The translations under genes and the position numbers were made by a program. Under the pieces are notes generated by a model that saw only the letters and a program-made list of their open reading frames with translations, made no database searches and was not told where the DNA came from. Shown in pieces: positions 8,882 to 41,711 of a stretch of 64,000 nt of DNA. Each line of letters starts with the position of its first letter. Position 1 is the stretch's first letter. This stretch comes from an uncultured Granulosicoccaceae bacterium (GTDB lineage Bacteria; Pseudomonadota; Gammaproteobacteria; Granulosicoccales; Granulosicoccaceae), in the NCBI GenBank assembly GCA_937922945.1, contig CAKZUP010000017.1, positions 1 to 64,000 of the forward strand. Direction: 5' to 3'.

Positions 8882-10267
8882 ATGTTAGACATTTATAATC
8901 CTTATAACGGTGAGCTCATTGAGCAAATCGATGTTAACAGCGCCAAGGACGTTGAGCAGGCTTTGGCGCGGGCGCATGCATTGTTTGAAAATCGTTCCGC
9001 TTGGCTACCTGCTTACCAGCGAGTTGAGATTCTTGAGCGCACAGCCCAGCTAATGAACGATCAAATAGAAGCGCTTACCGTTCTCGCGGCATCGGAGGGT
9101 GGAAAACCGTATGCTGATTCTAAGGTAGAGGTGCTCAGAGCCATAAACGGTGTCAAGTTAGCCATCGAGCATATTCCACAAAATAAGGGCGAACAAATCC
9201 CTATGGGCCACACCGAGTCCTCAACTAATAGGCTTGCATTTACGCAGCGAGAGCCTATCGGTGTAGTGTCATCGATCAGTGCTTTTAATCATCCTTTAAA
9301 CCTGATTGTTCACCAGTGCGTCCCGGCTATTGCAGTGGGTTCGCCTGTTATTATTAAGCCTGCACGAACCACCCCCTTGTCGTGCTTAAAGTTTGTTCAG
9401 TTACTCAAAGAAGCTGGTTTGCCCGATGGTTGGTGCCAAGCCCTGATTCTGGAAAACCAAGACGCTGAAAAACTTGTCACTGACGAACGCGTTAATTTTT
9501 TTTCGTTCATTGGTTCTGCAGAAATTGGTTGGATGTTGCGCTCAAAGCTCGCACCTGGAACACGGTGCGCGCTAGAGCATGGTGGAGCCGCACCGGTTAT
9601 TGTTGATCAATCGGCTTCTGTCGATATGGTTATCGATAGCCTGCTCAAAGGCGGTTTCTATCATGCGGGGCAGGTCTGTGTTTCTGTTCAGCGGGTATTC
9701 GTGCACGAAAGCGTTTGTACGGAGCTGGCCGATCAGCTTGCTGCCAAAGCAACTCATTTAAAAGTGGGTGATCAGCTGGATCCCGACACAGAAGTAGGCC
9801 CACTTATTTTGCCTAAAGAAGTCGACCGTGTATCCCAGTGGGTTGACGATGCGAAAAAGAAAGGTGCACAGGTGCTGTGCGGCGGTGAAAAACTATCGGA
9901 TACATGCTACGCCCCTACCGTACTGTTGAACCCTGATGAAGACGCCATGGTCAGTCAGAAAGAAATATTTGGCCCCGTGGTTTGCATCTATTCTTACAAA
10001 GATAAGGAAGAGGCTATAGCCCGAGCAAACGCTCTACCGTACGCCTTTCAAGCATCAATTTACTCAAACGATTTAACCGATGTACTGGATACATCCAGCA
10101 AGCTTAATGCTACAGCCGTTATGGTGAATGATCACACCGCGTTCCGAGTTGATTGGATGCCGTTCGGTGGTCGTGATGCATCTGGTATTGGCATGGGAGG
10201 TATCCAATACTCAATGCATGAAATGACTCGTGAAAAAATGCTGGTTATTAAAAGCAGCGTATTGTAA
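8882..10267 (+). CDS. NAD(P)-dependent aldehyde dehydrogenase
   Basis: 461 residues. The ATG at 8882 is preferred over one at 8852 because AAGGAG at 8871-8876 is ideally spaced to it and the protein then starts MLDIYNPYNGE as in the family. The Rossmann part carries FNHPLNLIVHQ and IIKPARTTPLS; the catalytic Glu is in LEHGGAAPV and the catalytic Cys in HAGQVCVSVQR; the C-terminal part has EIFGPVVCIY and MPFGG. It oxidises an aldehyde to an acid. It shares an operon with the ThDP enzyme upstream, which could supply or consume the aldehyde. The substrate is not identifiable. Confidence 0.88.
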   Translation: MLDIYNPYNGELIEQIDVNSAKDVEQALARAHALFENRSAWLPAYQRVEILERTAQLMNDQIEALTVLAASEGGKPYADSKVEVLRAINGVKLAIEHIPQNKGEQIPMGHTESSTNRLAFTQREPIGVVSSISAFNHPLNLIVHQCVPAIAVGSPVIIKPARTTPLSCLKFVQLLKEAGLPDGWCQALILENQDAEKLVTDERVNFFSFIGSAEIGWMLRSKLAPGTRCALEHGGAAPVIVDQSASVDMVIDSLLKGGFYHAGQVCVSVQRVFVHESVCTELADQLAAKATHLKVGDQLDPDTEVGPLILPKEVDRVSQWVDDAKKKGAQVLCGGEKLSDTCYAPTVLLNPDEDAMVSQKEIFGPVVCIYSYKDKEEAIARANALPYAFQASIYSNDLTDVLDTSSKLNATAVMVNDHTAFRVDWMPFGGRDASGIGMGGIQYSMHEMTREKMLVIKSSVL

Positions 10268-10300
10268 GTATTTATTTAAATTCAAAACTTAGGAATAACA

Positions 10301-10726
10301 ATGAACATAGTTAAACATGTATTGGCGCTTGCATTGGCCGCCGCGATGTTATTTATGGGGTTACAAAAATTCGGGGCTGAAAACATTGTCTTTGGCACTA
10401 TTGCTCAAAACACCGGTATAAGTTTTTTCGAACCGAATTTCAGAATGTTGACTGGTGTGCTGGAAGTGTTGGCAGGGCTGTTAATGTTTCATCCCCGTAC
10501 CCGTGGCGCAGGCGCACTTTTCGCCACTGGCATCGTAGCTGGCGCGGTTGTGTTTCATTTATCGCCTTGGCTGGGTACTAAAGTAGCGTTGGCTGCTGGT
10601 GCTGAACCAACTTATCAACTGTTCATCATGGCGATTGTGTTTCTAGTGCTTGCGTTGATCAACCTGGCTTTGAATCGGCAAACGGTACCGGTTATTGGGA
10701 GCCGGTTTATAGATAGCAAATCATGA
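10301..10726 (+). CDS. DoxX-family membrane protein
   Basis: 141 residues, four predicted membrane spans. The pattern AAAMLFMGLQKFG in span 1, FRMLTGVLEVLAGLLM in span 2 and GALFATGIVAGAVVFH in span 3 matches the DoxX/DoxX-like family. Members are small membrane proteins often placed beside oxidoreductases; their precise role is unclear. AGGAATAACA precedes the ATG. It closes the ThDP enzyme/aldehyde dehydrogenase operon and converges on the puuE-like gene. Confidence 0.75.
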   Translation: MNIVKHVLALALAAAMLFMGLQKFGAENIVFGTIAQNTGISFFEPNFRMLTGVLEVLAGLLMFHPRTRGAGALFATGIVAGAVVFHLSPWLGTKVALAAGAEPTYQLFIMAIVFLVLALINLALNRQTVPVIGSRFIDSKS

Positions 10727-10795
10727 TTGAGTAAGCGACTTTCAGGTTTATCACCGCGCCTGCAATTTTACCCATCAGCTCATTGTTATTTAGCA

Positions 10796-11722
10796 TTAGA
10801 CTGAAGCAGGAGCCGGAAATTTTTGCTTCCAATGGTGCGCAATATCGAGTCTGGTAGTTACCCAGACTCGTTCTTGTGACTGTACATAGTCAAGGAACTT
10901 AGCAACCGCCGCGGCTCGTCCCGGTCTGCCTGCCAAACGACAATGTAAACCGATGGACATCATTTTGGGTGCTCCTGCCAGACCTTCTGCGTGCAGTACA
11001 TCAAAACTGTCTTTAAGGTATTGAAAGAACTGCACACCGGAGTTGAACCCTTGCGGAGTGGCAAAACGCATATCGTTTGCATCGAGCGTGTAGGGCACCA
11101 TAAGTTGCGGCCCGTGCGCGCTCTGCCGCCAATACGGAAGCTCGTCTGCATAGGTATCGGCGCTGTATTCAAAGTGTGCGTATTCTGCGCATAAATCCTG
11201 CGTGTGCTCAGATGTTCTGCCAATGTAGGCACCGGCTGGCAACTCGCCGGTTACTGATTGATGCAAAGCAATGGCTTCTTCCAAGTGCTTGCGCTCATCG
11301 TTTTGTGAAAAGTTGCGATAGTCAATCCAGCGCAAGCCGTGCGTAGCAATTTCCCATTGGCTTTTTTGCATGGCTTTAACCACGTCAGGGGCTCTTGCCA
11401 GCGCCATGGCCACACCGAACACGGTTACCGGAAGATTGCGTTCAGTGAACAGGCGATGTAATCGCCAGAAACCCGCTCGTGAACCGAACTCGTAAATCGA
11501 CTCCATGTTCATATGCCGTTGACCCGGCCACGCATCAGCGCCGACGATTTCTGATAAAAACGCCTCTGAAGCTGCATCGCCATGGAGTATGTTGTTTTCG
11601 CCGCCTTCCTCGTAGTTGACTACAAATTGAACGGCAATGGCGGCATCGTTGGGCCAGGCTGGATGAGGTGGATGTTCACCGTAGCCGAGCATGTCTCTTG
11701 GGTAAGAATTTGTCATGCTCAT
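10796..11722 (-). CDS. puuE: PuuE-type polysaccharide deacetylase family (allantoinase-like)
   Basis: 308 residues. The protein begins PRDMLGYGEHPPHPAWPN and contains VQFVVNYEEGGE, FGSRAGFWRLHRLF, ATHGLRWIDY and GYIGRTSEHT-type motifs (here AYIGRTSEHT), all typical of the cofactor-independent allantoinase/urate-catabolism deacetylases. These hydrolyse (S)-allantoin to allantoate in the cytoplasm. No other ureide genes are in the window, so the substrate remains open within the family. The start may be the ATG at 11722 or the one six bases further in (11716). A broken copy of its 3' end lies at 2390-2545. Confidence 0.82.
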   Translation of the reverse strand: MSMTNSYPRDMLGYGEHPPHPAWPNDAAIAVQFVVNYEEGGENNILHGDAASEAFLSEIVGADAWPGQRHMNMESIYEFGSRAGFWRLHRLFTERNLPVTVFGVAMALARAPDVVKAMQKSQWEIATHGLRWIDYRNFSQNDERKHLEEAIALHQSVTGELPAGAYIGRTSEHTQDLCAEYAHFEYSADTYADELPYWRQSAHGPQLMVPYTLDANDMRFATPQGFNSGVQFFQYLKDSFDVLHAEGLAGAPKMMSIGLHCRLAGRPGRAAAVAKFLDYVQSQERVWVTTRLDIAHHWKQKFPAPASV

Positions 11723-36770: not shown

Positions 36771-36938
36771 GCGTTTGTGGATTCGCATCCCGGGGTTTGT
36801 GTGCGGTAGCTTATAGGTTGAATTCGACTAATGAAGTTTGGCTATTAGAGCCGATCACACTGTGTAAACCATGGCATACTATTGTGGATAAGTATAACGA
36901 TACTCGATGCTCCTTAAGATTTAGATGGTGTGGATGGT

Positions 36939-37505
36939 ATGAGCGAATTTACCGACTATTTACAAGATGTGTTTTCCACGTTCGGGCATATTAGTGTTCG
37001 CAAAATGTTCGGTGGTCACGGTATCTACTTTGACGATTGCATGTTCGGCTTGGTAGCAGATGATATGCTGTATTTAAAAGTCGATTCGGAAAATATTCAG
37101 CATTTTGAGGCCCTTGATTTGCCGGCTTTTGAGTACACCAAGTCAGATGGGCGCCCCATGAAAATGAGTTTTTATCTAGCGCCCGAATCAATTTATGAAG
37201 AACAGGAAGAGGCCCGTGAATGGGCTGCTCATGCGTGGGAAGCAGCCAGACGCGCTAAAGCACAAAAACGCGTTGCGGGAAAAAGAGCAACTAAAAAGAA
37301 GTCTGCCAAGAAACGCGCTTCCGACAGTACAGCTATAACCAAACAGCTTGTTTCCAAAAAAGTTGGTGCGAAAGGGACGAACAAAGGGACGAGGAAAGTG
37401 GCGAAGAAAGTGGCGAAGAAAGTGGCAAATAAAGTGGTCAAGAAAGTAGCGGAAAAAATAACGAAAAAAGTAACCAAGAAAGCGACTGGTAAGAAAAGTA
37501 CTTAA
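36939..37505 (+). CDS. TfoX N-terminal domain protein with H1-like Lys/Ala/Val tail
   Basis: 188 residues. The ATG at 36939 is preferred to a GTG at 36930. Residues ~5-95 match the TfoX N-terminal domain: FSTFGHISVRKMFGGHGIYF, MFGLVADDMLYLKVD and RPMKMSFYLAPESIYE. The TfoX C-terminal domain is absent; instead the last ~85 residues are almost only Lys, Ala, Val, Thr and Arg with repeated KKVAKKVAKKVANK-like units, which should be unfolded and bind nucleic acid like histone H1. It is followed three bases later by the sugar kinase gene, on the same strand. Family members influence competence gene expression in some species; here a nucleoid or regulatory role is possible. Confidence 0.82.
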   Translation: MSEFTDYLQDVFSTFGHISVRKMFGGHGIYFDDCMFGLVADDMLYLKVDSENIQHFEALDLPAFEYTKSDGRPMKMSFYLAPESIYEEQEEAREWAAHAWEAARRAKAQKRVAGKRATKKKSAKKRASDSTAITKQLVSKKVGAKGTNKGTRKVAKKVAKKVANKVVKKVAEKITKKVTKKATGKKST

Positions 37506-37508
37506 GCT

Positions 37509-38723
37509 ATGGCAAACCTTCAGTCCTCGCCAGAGGCATCATCCCTCCAACACCATATCGATCATGTAACGGTAAAAGCGAAGCAGCTTTTCGGCCGTGA
37601 TGATGAGCCTGTCATTGTGGTTTCGCCTTATAGAATGAACCCGATAGGGGCGCATGTAGATCATCAGGGCGGGTCGGTTTTGGCACGAACCATAAACCAG
37701 TACACATTGCTGGCACTCTATCCGACTCATTCGCAGCAAGTGATACTGCACTGCGATAATGGCGAGAGAGCGGATACAACAGAGACCTTCAACTTAAGCG
37801 GCAAAGTCGAGGGCGAGAATTGGGTTCGTTATGCAAAGGCCAGCGCGGCTTGTTTTGAATCTCTACATTCTGGTGCTGAAGGGTTTGCTGGACTGGTGTT
37901 TGGGACCTTGGTTGGTGCAGGCCTGAGTTCTTCAGCATCAGTAATCCTTTCTTATCTCGCCGGGCTGGCGCATGTCAATAATTTGCAGCTAAGTAATAAA
38001 GAATTAGTGGAGTTGTGTCGGCGCGTAGAGAATGAGTACATGGGACTAAACAATGGCTTGCAAGATCAAATGTCCATTGTGTTCGGACGCCAGAGCGGTC
38101 TTTCCTTGCTGGATATGGATTCGGTATCAGCCGAATACTGCACGAATCCGCAATCGATGGACGACGTGAGTTGGGTTGTTTGCTATTCCGGTTTTTCCCG
38201 CGAATTGGTCTCTTCAGGCTTTAACGATCGAGTAAAAGAATGCCGGGAAGCGGCCAATCAGCTCGATGCGAACGCGAGTATTCTTGGAGAGGTGTCCATG
38301 GAACGACGAAGTAGCGATAACCTGAATCAGTTAGCACCTCACCTTGCTCGTCGCGCACAACATGTTTTCTCGGAAATGCAACGCGTTGAACAAGGGCGCG
38401 AAGCCTGGCAGTGTGGAGATTGGAAACAGTTTGGCGCATTGATGAACCAATCTTGTTACAGCTCAATAAATCACTATGAATGTGGAAGCCAGCCGATGGT
38501 CGATTTGCATCAGATAGCTCTTCAGCAACCAGCTGTTTACGGCAGCCGCTTTGGCGGTGGTGGTTATGGTGGGTGTTTAATGATGCTGGTGCGCTCTGAA
38601 GATACCGATAGGGTAAAAAACGAGGTGCTAAAATCGTACCTTGAACACTATCCCGAAAAAACCGCACAAGCAAGAGCGTTCGTTGCAGACGCTGAAAGTT
38701 GTGTTCGGGTAGTCTCTTCATGA
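37509..38723 (+). CDS. Galacturonokinase/galactokinase-like GHMP sugar kinase
   Basis: 404 residues. GHMP motifs in order: SPYRMNPIGAHVDHQGG at the N-terminus, VGAGLSSSASVILSYLAGL in the middle and FGGGGYGGCLMML near the end; GLNNGLQDQMSIVFGRQSG lies after motif 2. Ordinary galactokinases have GRxNLIGEHTDYxxG; the Ala and His here (IGAHVDHQGG) match, from memory, the plant galacturonokinase type. It probably phosphorylates a hexose or uronic acid at C1 in the cytoplasm. Its stop overlaps the ATG of a sugar-1-phosphate nucleotidyltransferase, a strong hint that the pair makes a nucleotide sugar from a free sugar. Confidence 0.8.
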   Translation: MANLQSSPEASSLQHHIDHVTVKAKQLFGRDDEPVIVVSPYRMNPIGAHVDHQGGSVLARTINQYTLLALYPTHSQQVILHCDNGERADTTETFNLSGKVEGENWVRYAKASAACFESLHSGAEGFAGLVFGTLVGAGLSSSASVILSYLAGLAHVNNLQLSNKELVELCRRVENEYMGLNNGLQDQMSIVFGRQSGLSLLDMDSVSAEYCTNPQSMDDVSWVVCYSGFSRELVSSGFNDRVKECREAANQLDANASILGEVSMERRSSDNLNQLAPHLARRAQHVFSEMQRVEQGREAWQCGDWKQFGALMNQSCYSSINHYECGSQPMVDLHQIALQQPAVYGSRFGGGGYGGCLMMLVRSEDTDRVKNEVLKSYLEHYPEKTAQARAFVADAESCVRVVSS

Positions 38724-39484
38724 ATCACGTTCCCGATAGCGTAGTGTCAAATGCCAAAGTGACCAGTGCCAAAGTAACGAGCGCCATCGTGTTGTGCGCG
38801 GGGCGTGGTAAACGCTTAAAGCCATTTACCGACAAAACACCAAAGCCCCTGCTGCCAGTTGGTGGCGTTCCTACGCTTGACTACATTTTAATAGCATTGC
38901 AGCGAGCGGGTATTCGCCGGCTTGTACTGGTTACTCATTATTTGAGTGATCAGATAGAAACGTATGCGAAACAACAAACGATTTTCCCTACAGATCTCAT
39001 TAGCTGTGTGCAACAGCGTAGTCTGGCGGGTACAGCAGATGCTACTTTAGCTGCGCTACAGGCTAAGCCTGATTGGTTTGAGCAGGCCTTCCTACTTACT
39101 GCCAGTGATTATCTTGTTCCGCCACCATTCTATGAGGCGTTGCTGACAAAATTTAATCAAAGTCAGTGCAAGGTAGGCATTAGTATTAAACGTTTGAGCG
39201 ATGCCGAATTGACTATGCGAAGCAGTGTTCGGTTTGATGAACGCGGTAATGTATCTGAGGTCGTGGAAAAACCCGCTGCAGGTACAGCTCCGAGTGCCTT
39301 CAGCGCAAATCTTGTCTACGTGCTGCCTGCTGATATTGTTCGTTCCATAGCCGAGGTAGCGCCATCCAGTCGAGGTGAAAAAGAAATTCAGACTGCGATA
39401 AATCGTTACCTTAGTGAGCATGGTGCCGCCTGCGTACTGGAGCAGGAGCCGCCTCAGGAATGGCACCCCGACATCGATCAATAG
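38720..39484 (+). CDS. NDP-sugar nucleotidyltransferase
   Basis: 254 residues from ATG 38720, overlapping the kinase stop (ATGA). The signature IVLCAGRGKRLKPFTDKTPK-PLLPVGG at the N-terminus is the nucleotide-binding G-x-G-x-R-x-x-PxT...KPxLPV motif; later LLTASDYLVPP (metal and NDP contact) and EVVEKPAAG follow. A glucose-1-phosphate or mannose-1-phosphate type transferase. Together with the kinase it could convert a free sugar to an NDP-sugar. The actual sugar and nucleotide are unknown. Confidence 0.83.
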   Translation: MNHVPDSVVSNAKVTSAKVTSAIVLCAGRGKRLKPFTDKTPKPLLPVGGVPTLDYILIALQRAGIRRLVLVTHYLSDQIETYAKQQTIFPTDLISCVQQRSLAGTADATLAALQAKPDWFEQAFLLTASDYLVPPPFYEALLTKFNQSQCKVGISIKRLSDAELTMRSSVRFDERGNVSEVVEKPAAGTAPSAFSANLVYVLPADIVRSIAEVAPSSRGEKEIQTAINRYLSEHGAACVLEQEPPQEWHPDIDQ

Positions 39485-40157: not shown

Positions 40158-40286
40158 CGCTTTTTTACCGTTGCATTTGGTTGATTGTTGTAGAGTTAAA
40201 TTCTTCAGAGTTATCCTGTCGTGTTGTTGGCTTTTAAAAGCGTTGTCGCTCGTTCAACGACCTGAATCAGATCTGTATTGACTTTG

Positions 40287-41711
40287 ATGCATTCCAAATT
40301 ACTGAACGAACTTCTGGACGGAGTGGGAATTGACCTCTCGTTCAACCCGTCACTTCAACTTGAAAGCCAAGGCCACGAAAGCCTCCCGTCCTGTTTTGCC
40401 GTAACTGAACTCGCTGCCACCAGTATGCTCACCGCCGCCAGCGCGTTGGCTGAATACTTCCACGCAGATGCCCGGCAAGCCAGTCACCAGCTGCCAACAA
40501 TGAACGACCTAACAGTTAATCGTCGCCTGGCTTCTTTGTGGTTTGATAAGAGCATGGTGGCGCAAGATTGGAAACCGGGTGGACTATGGGATGACATCGC
40601 TGGCGATTACGCCTGCGCCGATGGATGGATTCGGCTACACACAAACGCACCTCATCACAAGAAAGCGGCAATGCAAGTTGTGTTGGGTGAAGCATTATCC
40701 GATAACCCGGGTAACGGCGAACCAACTATAAAGCAGCGCGTTACTGAAGCCATTCGCTTACGCCATAAAGACGAACTGGAGCAATCGATAGTGGATGTCG
40801 ACGGTTGTGCTGCTGCTATGCGCTCTATTGCAGATTGGCAATTGCATGCTCAGGGAAGGGCTGTTGCCGGTGAGCCGTTGGTGCACTGGGAAGAGGGGCA
40901 GGCGATACAACCGGTAAGCACACCGGTATCCATTGAGCGACCATTAAACGGTATCCGAGTGTTGGATTTAACCCGTGTTTTGGCAGGTCCTGTCTCTACA
41001 CGTTTTCTTGCAGCATTTGGGGCAGAGGTGTTGCGTATCGATCCCATCGACTGGAACGAGCCGGCTGTCATACCTGAAGTCACTTTGGGTAAGCGGTGTG
41101 CGCACCTTGACTTAAAAAGTGATGATGGTCGAGCCCAGTTGCTGGCACTACTGGATTCTGCCGATGTGCTTGTTCACGGCTACCGCCCCGGTGCTATGGA
41201 GGGTCTAGGATTATCAACGAATGTGTTGCGCAAGGTTAACCCTGCGTTAATTGAGGTGTCACTCTGTGCATACGGGTGGACTGGTCCATGGGCGACGCGA
41301 AGGGGGTTTGACAGCCTTGTGCAAATGAGTTGCGGAATTGCCGATGAAGGTATGCGTCATTACGCGACTGATAAACCTCAGCCATTACCGGTTCAGGCAC
41401 TCGATCATGCAACCGGTTATTTGATGGCAGCAGCTGCACTGCATGCGCTTGCACTGAGGCGCAAGGCGGGTCGTGTGCTTCAGGCGAAACTATCGCTGGC
41501 CAGAACTGCCAACACACTGTTGCAGTATCCGCAATCCGATAGCCGGTCGGCGTTCAAGCCTATGGGCGAAGCAGATATCAATAACCATCTTGAGCACACT
41601 AGCTGGGGAATGGCGCGACGCGTATCATTTCCTCTGACGATTGATGGCGTCAAAATCAGTTGGGATCACCCGGCCAGTGATTTAAGATCAGACTGTCCGA
41701 AGTGGTTGTAA
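40287..41711 (+). CDS. CaiB/BaiF (class III) CoA transferase, long form
   Basis: 474 residues from ATG 40287. The classic N-terminal motif of the family, IRVLDLTRVLAGPVSTRFLA, lies in the middle (about residue 225), followed by KRCAHLDLKS and the catalytic Asp in GFDSLVQMSCG. Before it stands a ~220-residue N-terminal half with GDYACADGWIRLHTNAPHH and DGCAAAMRSIADWQLHAQG, patterns normally found at the C-terminal end of CaiB proteins. So the chain looks like small and large domains in swapped order. It probably moves CoA between two organic acids. Substrate unknown. Confidence 0.8.
   Translation: MHSKLLNELLDGVGIDLSFNPSLQLESQGHESLPSCFAVTELAATSMLTAASALAEYFHADARQASHQLPTMNDLTVNRRLASLWFDKSMVAQDWKPGGLWDDIAGDYACADGWIRLHTNAPHHKKAAMQVVLGEALSDNPGNGEPTIKQRVTEAIRLRHKDELEQSIVDVDGCAAAMRSIADWQLHAQGRAVAGEPLVHWEEGQAIQPVSTPVSIERPLNGIRVLDLTRVLAGPVSTRFLAAFGAEVLRIDPIDWNEPAVIPEVTLGKRCAHLDLKSDDGRAQLLALLDSADVLVHGYRPGAMEGLGLSTNVLRKVNPALIEVSLCAYGWTGPWATRRGFDSLVQMSCGIADEGMRHYATDKPQPLPVQALDHATGYLMAAAALHALALRRKAGRVLQAKLSLARTANTLLQYPQSDSRSAFKPMGEADINNHLEHTSWGMARRVSFPLTIDGVKISWDHPASDLRSDCPKWL

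What the first reader, a model, noticed from the sequence alone, without database searches (positions are those of the whole stretch)
37509..39484. Candidate bacterial galacturonokinase and nucleotidyltransferase salvage pair
The kinase N-terminal motif SPYRMNPIGAHVDHQGG and GLNNGLQDQ are, from memory, closer to plant galacturonokinase than to galactokinase, and the gene overlaps (ATGA) that of a sugar-1-phosphate nucleotidyltransferase. Together they could turn free galacturonate, or another sugar, into an NDP-sugar in two steps, a route well known in plants but little described in bacteria. It could feed the making of a surface polysaccharide.
Basis: partly seen in the sequence, partly recalled or inferred. 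Interest (0 to 1): 0.75.

Follow-up and report, generated by a model that had tools for sequence, protein, structure and literature searches.

The report
Bacterial uronate-salvage kinase and nucleotidyltransferase pair
A marine bacterium carries a two-gene unit whose kinase looks related to the plant enzyme that recycles galacturonic acid rather than to ordinary galactokinase, next to an enzyme that could turn its product into a building block for surface sugars; the activity itself is untested.

Summary
In detail: 37509-38723 encodes a 404-aa galactokinase-fold kinase, 38720-39484 a 254-aa sugar-1-phosphate nucleotidyltransferase, overlapping by ATGA. The kinase misses all five NCBIfam galactokinase cut-offs; the genome's other homologue passes two and lies in a GH36-galK-galT-GH42 cluster. 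In 21 full-length relatives (window included) the Glu/Asp seen in 50 of 50 galactokinases is Ala (20) or Ser (1). Kinase and nucleotidyltransferase are adjacent in 22 of 22 loci holding both sides. On the Lactococcus plasmid a kinase (split in two ORFs) and nucleotidyltransferase lie between an SDR and a UDP-glucose-dehydrogenase-like gene in an exopolysaccharide cluster. Best reading: hexuronate 1-kinase plus NDP-uronate pyrophosphorylase, GalA and/or GlcA. Against: 19 of 21 have Phe where the recalled plant GalAK has Tyr250, and three genomes keep the nucleotidyltransferase beside galK without this kinase. No activity is shown.

The parts
37509..38723 (+). GHMP/galactokinase-fold sugar 1-kinase, GalAK-like clade (404 aa, P0001)
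37623..37673 (+). sugar-binding motif SPYRMNPIGAHVDHQGG (residues 39-55); Ala48 stands where the human GALK1 chain has Glu50 (Glu43 of the natural protein, by recall)
38043..38069 (+). GLNNGLQDQ (residues 179-187), with Asp186 aligned with the galactokinase DQ motif
38220..38222 (+). Phe238, the column of recalled AtGalAK Tyr250 and of Tyr243 of the human GALK1 chain
38720..39484 (+). sugar-1-phosphate nucleotidyltransferase, GalU/RmlA/ST0452-like fold (254 aa from ATG 38720, P0002)
39218..39226 (+). Arg167-Ser168-Ser169 of the nucleotidyltransferase, invariant in its clade; by recall RmlA-type enzymes have a Tyr-Gly sugar contact in this stretch
   Evidence: 21 of 21 rows; kept in three more; not present in the viral and Lactococcus partners

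Best explanation
The pair is a two-step salvage unit for a free hexuronic acid. The kinase phosphorylates C1 of D-galacturonate and/or D-glucuronate with ATP; the enzyme of the overlapping gene then joins the uronate-1-phosphate to a nucleotide, most likely UTP, giving UDP-GalA/UDP-GlcA for surface glycans. Shown here: gene anatomy, a kinase lineage distinct from galactokinase, replacement of the galactokinase Glu/Asp by Ala/Ser, conserved pairing, and a similar pair next to a UDP-glucose-dehydrogenase-like gene and an SDR in an exopolysaccharide cluster of another phylum. Inferred: substrate, nucleotide, direction and use of the product.
For: (1) The kinase fails all five NCBIfam galactokinase cut-offs (best 217.3 of 385 bits; TIGR00131 197.5 of 226.65), while the genome's other homologue passes two of the five (464.3 of 385; 351.7 of 226.65) and lies with GH36, GalT and GH42 genes, so galactose is probably served there. 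(2) 21 window-type kinases, the viral-contig kinase and the L. garvieae C-terminal ORF are one side of a branch, bootstrap 100 / SH-aLRT 100, in a 64-row tree without recalled sequence. The recalled AtGalAK joins them (SH-aLRT 100); placing it with three galactokinase groupings is rejected (p-AU 1.0e-4, 1.3e-12, 9.1e-7). (3) Of 31 columns that separate the 21 from 50 galactokinases, the recalled AtGalAK has the clade letter at 17, the galactokinase letter at 5 and another at 9. (4) Glu (42) or Asp (8) of 50 galactokinases is Ala in 20 and Ser in 1 of 21. (5) Over 48 genomes: both genes 23, nucleotidyltransferase only 3, kinase only 0, neither 22 (five weak nucleotidyltransferase matches of 77-82 bits not counted). 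In five loci the pair lies away from pilT/pilU and is still together. (6) The viral contig and the L. garvieae plasmid also have such a kinase followed by a nucleotidyltransferase, on the plasmid followed by a UDP-glucose-6-dehydrogenase-like gene. These two partners are 49% identical to each other but align with the window's only in part (21-27%), so the pairing probably arose more than once. (7) The host genome has two UDP-glucose-dehydrogenase-like genes (over the subfamily cut-off, under the equivalog ones), so UDP-uronates are probably used.
Against: No activity data. Phe replaces Tyr250 in 19 of 21, whereas the viral and Lactococcus kinases have Tyr there by eye. G014, G016 and G018 carry the nucleotidyltransferase beside a GH36-galK-galT-GH42 cluster with no window-type kinase, which would suit Gal-1-P. 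The usual neighbours of the pair are housekeeping genes. UxaC is absent from this genome and uncorrelated with the kinase (5 of 23 versus 6 of 25). The best PDB hit of the L. garvieae SDR is named a dTDP-glucose 4,6-dehydratase, so its role as a uronate epimerase is my reading; and the L. garvieae kinase is split into two ORFs, so may not work. The RSS motif of the nucleotidyltransferase is absent from the viral and Lactococcus partners, so it is no general uronate mark. The third dehydrogenase of the host is a TviB match (649 of 592), which points to an N-acetylated uronate, not GalA. The kinase model has low confidence where the sugar should bind.
Confidence: 0.6

Rival explanations
1. The pair handles galactose by a GalT-independent route: the kinase makes Gal-1-P and the nucleotidyltransferase makes UDP-Gal directly from UTP.
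For: Galactokinase fold and Pfam domains; the nucleotidyltransferase lies beside a galK-galT cluster in G014, G016 and G018.
Against: Loss of the Glu/Asp in 21 of 21; an ordinary GalK with GalT in the same genome; long separate branch.
Confidence: 0.15
2. The substrate is another galactose-like sugar with a missing or altered C6, such as L-arabinopyranose or 6-O-methylgalactose, giving the corresponding NDP-sugar.
For: Ala in place of Glu says only that O6 is not bound as in galactose (the contact itself is recalled); a galactokinase Tyr is Phe in 19 of 21.
Against: The link to GalAK (recalled plant row) and the dehydrogenase and SDR genes beside the Lactococcus pair point to uronates.
Confidence: 0.18
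3. The kinase is a non-catalytic or regulatory relative, as yeast Gal3 is of galactokinase (recalled).
For: A Gal3 chain is among the PDB relatives.
Against: Arg42, His49, Asp51, Gly138-Ser142 and Asp186 are invariant in 21 rows, and it is coupled to a nucleotidyltransferase that would need its product.
Confidence: 0.03

Closest known systems
Plant galacturonokinase GalAK (Arabidopsis At3g10700) with UDP-sugar pyrophosphorylase (USPase, SLOPPY)
   Same: Kinase lineage (plant sequence recalled), Ala in the GxH motif, two-step kinase plus pyrophosphorylase logic (PMC8636097 and PMC5609113, passages seen)
   Different: Bacterial two-gene overlapping unit; Phe instead of Tyr250; the partner is of the GalU/RmlA type, and its relation to plant USPase was not tested
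Galactokinase GalK with GalT (Leloir pathway)
   Same: Fold and Pfam domains
   Different: Below all five NCBIfam cut-offs, no Glu/Asp in the motif; in the window no GalT beside it
Zebrafish glucuronokinase/putative pyrophosphorylase fusion DrGKUP (PMC3938481, start of abstract and passages seen)
   Same: A GHMP-type uronate kinase coupled to a bacterial-type nucleotidyltransferase
   Different: One fused protein, in an animal; the passages report no pyrophosphorylase activity in a standard HPLC assay, while the abstract says it requires UTP; its sequence relation to the window proteins was not tested
GalU / RmlA / ST0452 nucleotidyltransferases
   Same: Fold and NTP_transferase domain
   Different: Of the 25 NCBIfam matches shown (34 in all) none reaches its cut-off; invariant RSS where a Tyr-Gly contact is recalled

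Membership tests
Galactokinase (GalK) | Curated NCBIfam equivalog score | tested here: not met
   217.3/385, 198.1/443, 197.5/226.65, 172.2/499, 127.5/509
Galactokinase (GalK) | Glu (or Asp) in the GEHTD motif | tested here: not met
   Ala in the window; Glu 42 and Asp 8 of 50 galactokinases
Galactokinase (GalK) | Galactose 1-kinase activity | not testable with these tools
   none
Galacturonokinase (GalAK) | Clusters with plant GalAK apart from galactokinases | tested here: inconclusive
   yes, but the plant row was recalled; without it the clade still stands apart with the viral and Lactococcus kinases
Galacturonokinase (GalAK) | Ala at position 41 (recalled as essential) | tested here: met
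   Ala48; 20 of 21 Ala, 1 Ser
Galacturonokinase (GalAK) | Tyr at position 250 (recalled as excluding GlcA) | tested here: not met
   Phe238; Phe 19, Tyr 2 of 21. By recall a specificity residue, so it bears on GalA versus GlcA more than on lineage
Galacturonokinase (GalAK) | Galacturonate 1-kinase activity | not testable with these tools
   none
Sugar-1-phosphate nucleotidyltransferase | NTP_transferase domain and fold | tested here: met
   (93.1 bits, cut-off 21.2)
UDP-uronate pyrophosphorylase | Activity on uronate-1-phosphate and UTP | not testable with these tools
   none

The most novel reading that the evidence does not exclude
Bacteria of two phyla, and a virus, carry a dedicated uronic-acid salvage route (free GalA/GlcA to uronate-1-phosphate to UDP-uronate), homologous to the plant GalAK step but with separately recruited nucleotidyltransferases; the marine form has a Phe238 pocket that takes both GalA and GlcA and feeds surface polysaccharide directly from algal or plant uronates.
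Probability: 0.4. Interest if true: 0.72.

Novelty: new variant of a known kind. Interest (0 to 1): 0.55.

Why it matters
Salvage of free galacturonate into a nucleotide sugar is described as a plant route (PMC8636097, passages). In the held open-access library, 6 papers with 'galacturonokinase', 4 with 'GalA-1-P' and 'kinase' and 18 with any of five related phrases show, judged by their listings, no work on a bacterial enzyme; two of the 18 are about bacteria, and the one I opened (PMC5607165) has the phrase only in its reference list. Most subscription papers are not held, so this is no proof of absence. A stable bacterial kinase would be of use: one group writes that the GalA kinase it tried was unstable and too weak for making UDP-GalA (PMC7984243, passage). 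And the letter in the GxH motif (Glu/Asp or Ala/Ser) would be a simple test for proteins now named galactokinase by homology.

Tried and rejected
Searches that gave little. Plasmids with the window kinase: 74 records, all under 60% identity; the 30 listed are 28-34% and mostly named galactokinase, 44 were not listed, so the Lactococcus record found later with the viral kinase may have been among them. A strict DNA pattern of the motif gave 0 in viral contigs. Class sample: of 369 genomes only the window's own reached a window-type score; two others had 207-210 bits, galactokinase level. Phylum sample: of 398 genomes 50 had a match at 1e-20, best apart from the window's own genome 138 bits. Phylum of L002: 0 of 296 at 1e-70, where the tool warns that an empty answer without a positive control shows nothing. 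UxaC showed no correlation with the kinase. Promoter and terminator scans gave no excess over shuffles. GC of the pair is like its surroundings, so a recent foreign origin is not suggested.

Considered and not included: the CoA-transferase and the large TRAP-permease ORF downstream, whose groups were found in 4 and 3 of the 26 loci compared. In G003 the pair lies just behind an ABC transporter whose best models are for 2-aminoethylphosphonate, below cut-off; one case, not used.

Rows dropped before counts. Trees: three partial window-type rows (L003, L014, L027) and duplicates (L002, L005, L032, L033) were left out. One search recovered a galactokinase by motif from 35 of 40 loci. One search left out ten rows: the recalled plant row, one PDB row and eight galactokinases, for long branches or as near-copies; the quick tree had warned of long branches meeting (the left-out PDB row with the clade, and the recalled row with the viral one).

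Full report
WHAT IS THERE. The window holds the two ORFs described, same strand, overlapping by ATGA. The kinase has all three Pfam domains of the galactokinase type, the partner an NTP_transferase domain. Upstream lie two pilT/pilU-like ORFs (by sequence, unscanned) and a TfoX_N protein, downstream a thymidine kinase. The window is part of contig C17 of a 5.04-Mb draft genome, 94% complete; the named records with the closest kinases are uncultured Granulosicoccaceae.

NOT AN ORDINARY GALACTOKINASE. All five NCBIfam galactokinase models match below their cut-offs. The genome has a second homologue, 31% identical, that passes two of the five and lies between a GH36 (melibiase-type) gene and a galT, followed by a GH42 gene. 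So galactose is probably handled there. Of 48 genomes examined, 42 have some homologue at 1e-20 and 23 have the window type. In the sampled genomes outside the family no window-type score was seen, within the limits given under Tried and rejected.

THE CLADE. In 21 full-length sequences the motif is [SA]PYR-x-NP[LI]G[AS]H[VI]DHQGG. Glu (42) or Asp (8) of 50 galactokinases is Ala in 20 and Ser in 1; the pair after the Asp, Tyr/Phe then Asn/Thr in galactokinases, is His-Gln in 21 of 21. By recall this Glu contacts O6 of galactose in human GALK1. The Tyr of 49 of 50 galactokinases, also present in the recalled plant GalAK, is Phe in 19 of 21, window included.

LINK TO GALAK. It joins the 21 with SH-aLRT 100, and placing it with three galactokinase groupings is rejected. 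Because that row is recalled, I looked for sequences that any reader can fetch: a viral contig (IMGVR_UViG_3300035501_001049) has a kinase with CPYRVCPLGSHIDHQHG, and a Lactococcus garvieae plasmid has one with FCPYRISPLGAHIDHQYG. A profile of the 21 gives 305 bits to the first, 228 to the C-terminal ORF of the second, 307 to the recalled plant row, and at most 222 to galactokinases; the 21 themselves score 543 or more. A bootstrapped tree without the recalled row puts the 21, the viral and the Lactococcus kinases on one side of a branch with 100/100.

THE PAIR. Kinase and nucleotidyltransferase are adjacent on the same strand in 22 of 22 loci that hold both sides (one of them with only the kinase's end). 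Counting from the first possible start, 16 show the 4-base overlap, and the window's ATG makes it 17. L001 and L003 are named contigs that seem to duplicate contigs of G041 and G042. Five loci lie away from the usual pilT/pilU neighbourhood with the pair together. Over 48 genomes: 23 both, 3 nucleotidyltransferase only, 0 kinase only, 22 neither (Fisher p 8e-11, ignoring relatedness). The three exceptions, G014, G016 and G018, have the nucleotidyltransferase with its RSS motif next to four genes that are 45-58% identical to the GH42, GalT, GalK and GH36 genes of the window's genome. That is the strongest fact against a strictly uronate-specific second step.

CONTEXT ELSEWHERE. On the L. garvieae plasmid the order is: exopolysaccharide genes, an SDR, the kinase in two ORFs (8941-9186, 9230-10117), a nucleotidyltransferase ORF that the gene table does not list (10133-10798), a UDP-glucose-6-dehydrogenase-like gene, glycosyltransferases. 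The SDR is annotated as a GDP-mannose 4,6-dehydratase, but that model gives 66 of 415 bits. Its best PDB hit is named a dTDP-glucose dehydratase (372 bits); WbgU (143), 6zl6 (138; by recall a UDP-glucuronate 4-epimerase) and MoeE5 (101; a UDP-glucuronate 4-epimerase) follow. It reads SSSVYG where, by recall, dehydratases have an Asp-Glu pair. UDP-glucuronate 4-epimerase is my reading, not shown. On the viral contig the nucleotidyltransferase follows the kinase by about 0.4 kb, with a small ORF between. These two partners are 49% identical to each other and align with the window's only in part, so similar pairing in different nucleotidyltransferase lines supports a functional link.

HOST. The genome shows no UxaC. 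It has two UDP-glucose-dehydrogenase-like genes, and a TviB match over its cut-off followed by an epimerase-like gene, which points to an N-acetylated uronate. So it probably makes and uses nucleotide-activated uronates. Kelp-associated Granulosicoccaceae were reported with alginate lyase genes (PMC9238374, passages seen).

STRUCTURE. The nucleotidyltransferase model (pLDDT 81, pTM 0.82) is closest to ST0452 and GalU structures. The kinase model (71, 0.71) matches galactokinases, with low confidence at residues 46-63 and over most of 179-209, where the sugar should bind, so no pocket geometry is claimed.

VERDICT. I put about 0.6 on a hexuronate (GalA and/or GlcA) 1-kinase with an NDP-uronate pyrophosphorylase; the step from lineage to substrate, and the choice between GalA and GlcA, need assays.

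Noticed in passing
L129:2497-4805: A 180-kb viral contig carries a GalAK-like kinase and, 0.4 kb on, a sugar-1-phosphate nucleotidyltransferase, behind two similar tandem ORFs (one scanned, no NCBIfam match).
   Followed up: partly
L137:7842-12157 (CP066001.1): Lactococcus garvieae exopolysaccharide plasmid: GalAK-like kinase split into two ORFs, both annotated hypothetical, and a nucleotidyltransferase ORF not in the gene table, between an SDR and a UDP-glucose-dehydrogenase-like gene.
   Followed up: partly
L115, L116, L117: G014, G018 and G016 keep the nucleotidyltransferase beside a GH36-galK-galT-GH42 cluster without the window-type kinase; their galK reads GEYTDFN in place of GEHTDYN.
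   Followed up: partly
window 36930-37505: TfoX_N-domain protein with a long Lys/Ala-rich, histone-like C-terminal tail.
   Followed up: no
window 40278-41708: CoA-transferase family III ORF that matches only positions 1-209 of the 366-position profile, behind about 220 N-terminal residues without a Pfam match.
   Followed up: no
L077:12387-17111: In G003 the pair lies directly behind an ABC transporter; its permease and binding protein score best with 2-aminoethylphosphonate models, below cut-offs.
   Followed up: partly
phages collection, H43, H46, H47: Short unannotated 'phage' records (2.7-8.9 kb) with galactokinase-level hits of about 29%; they may be host DNA.
   Followed up: no
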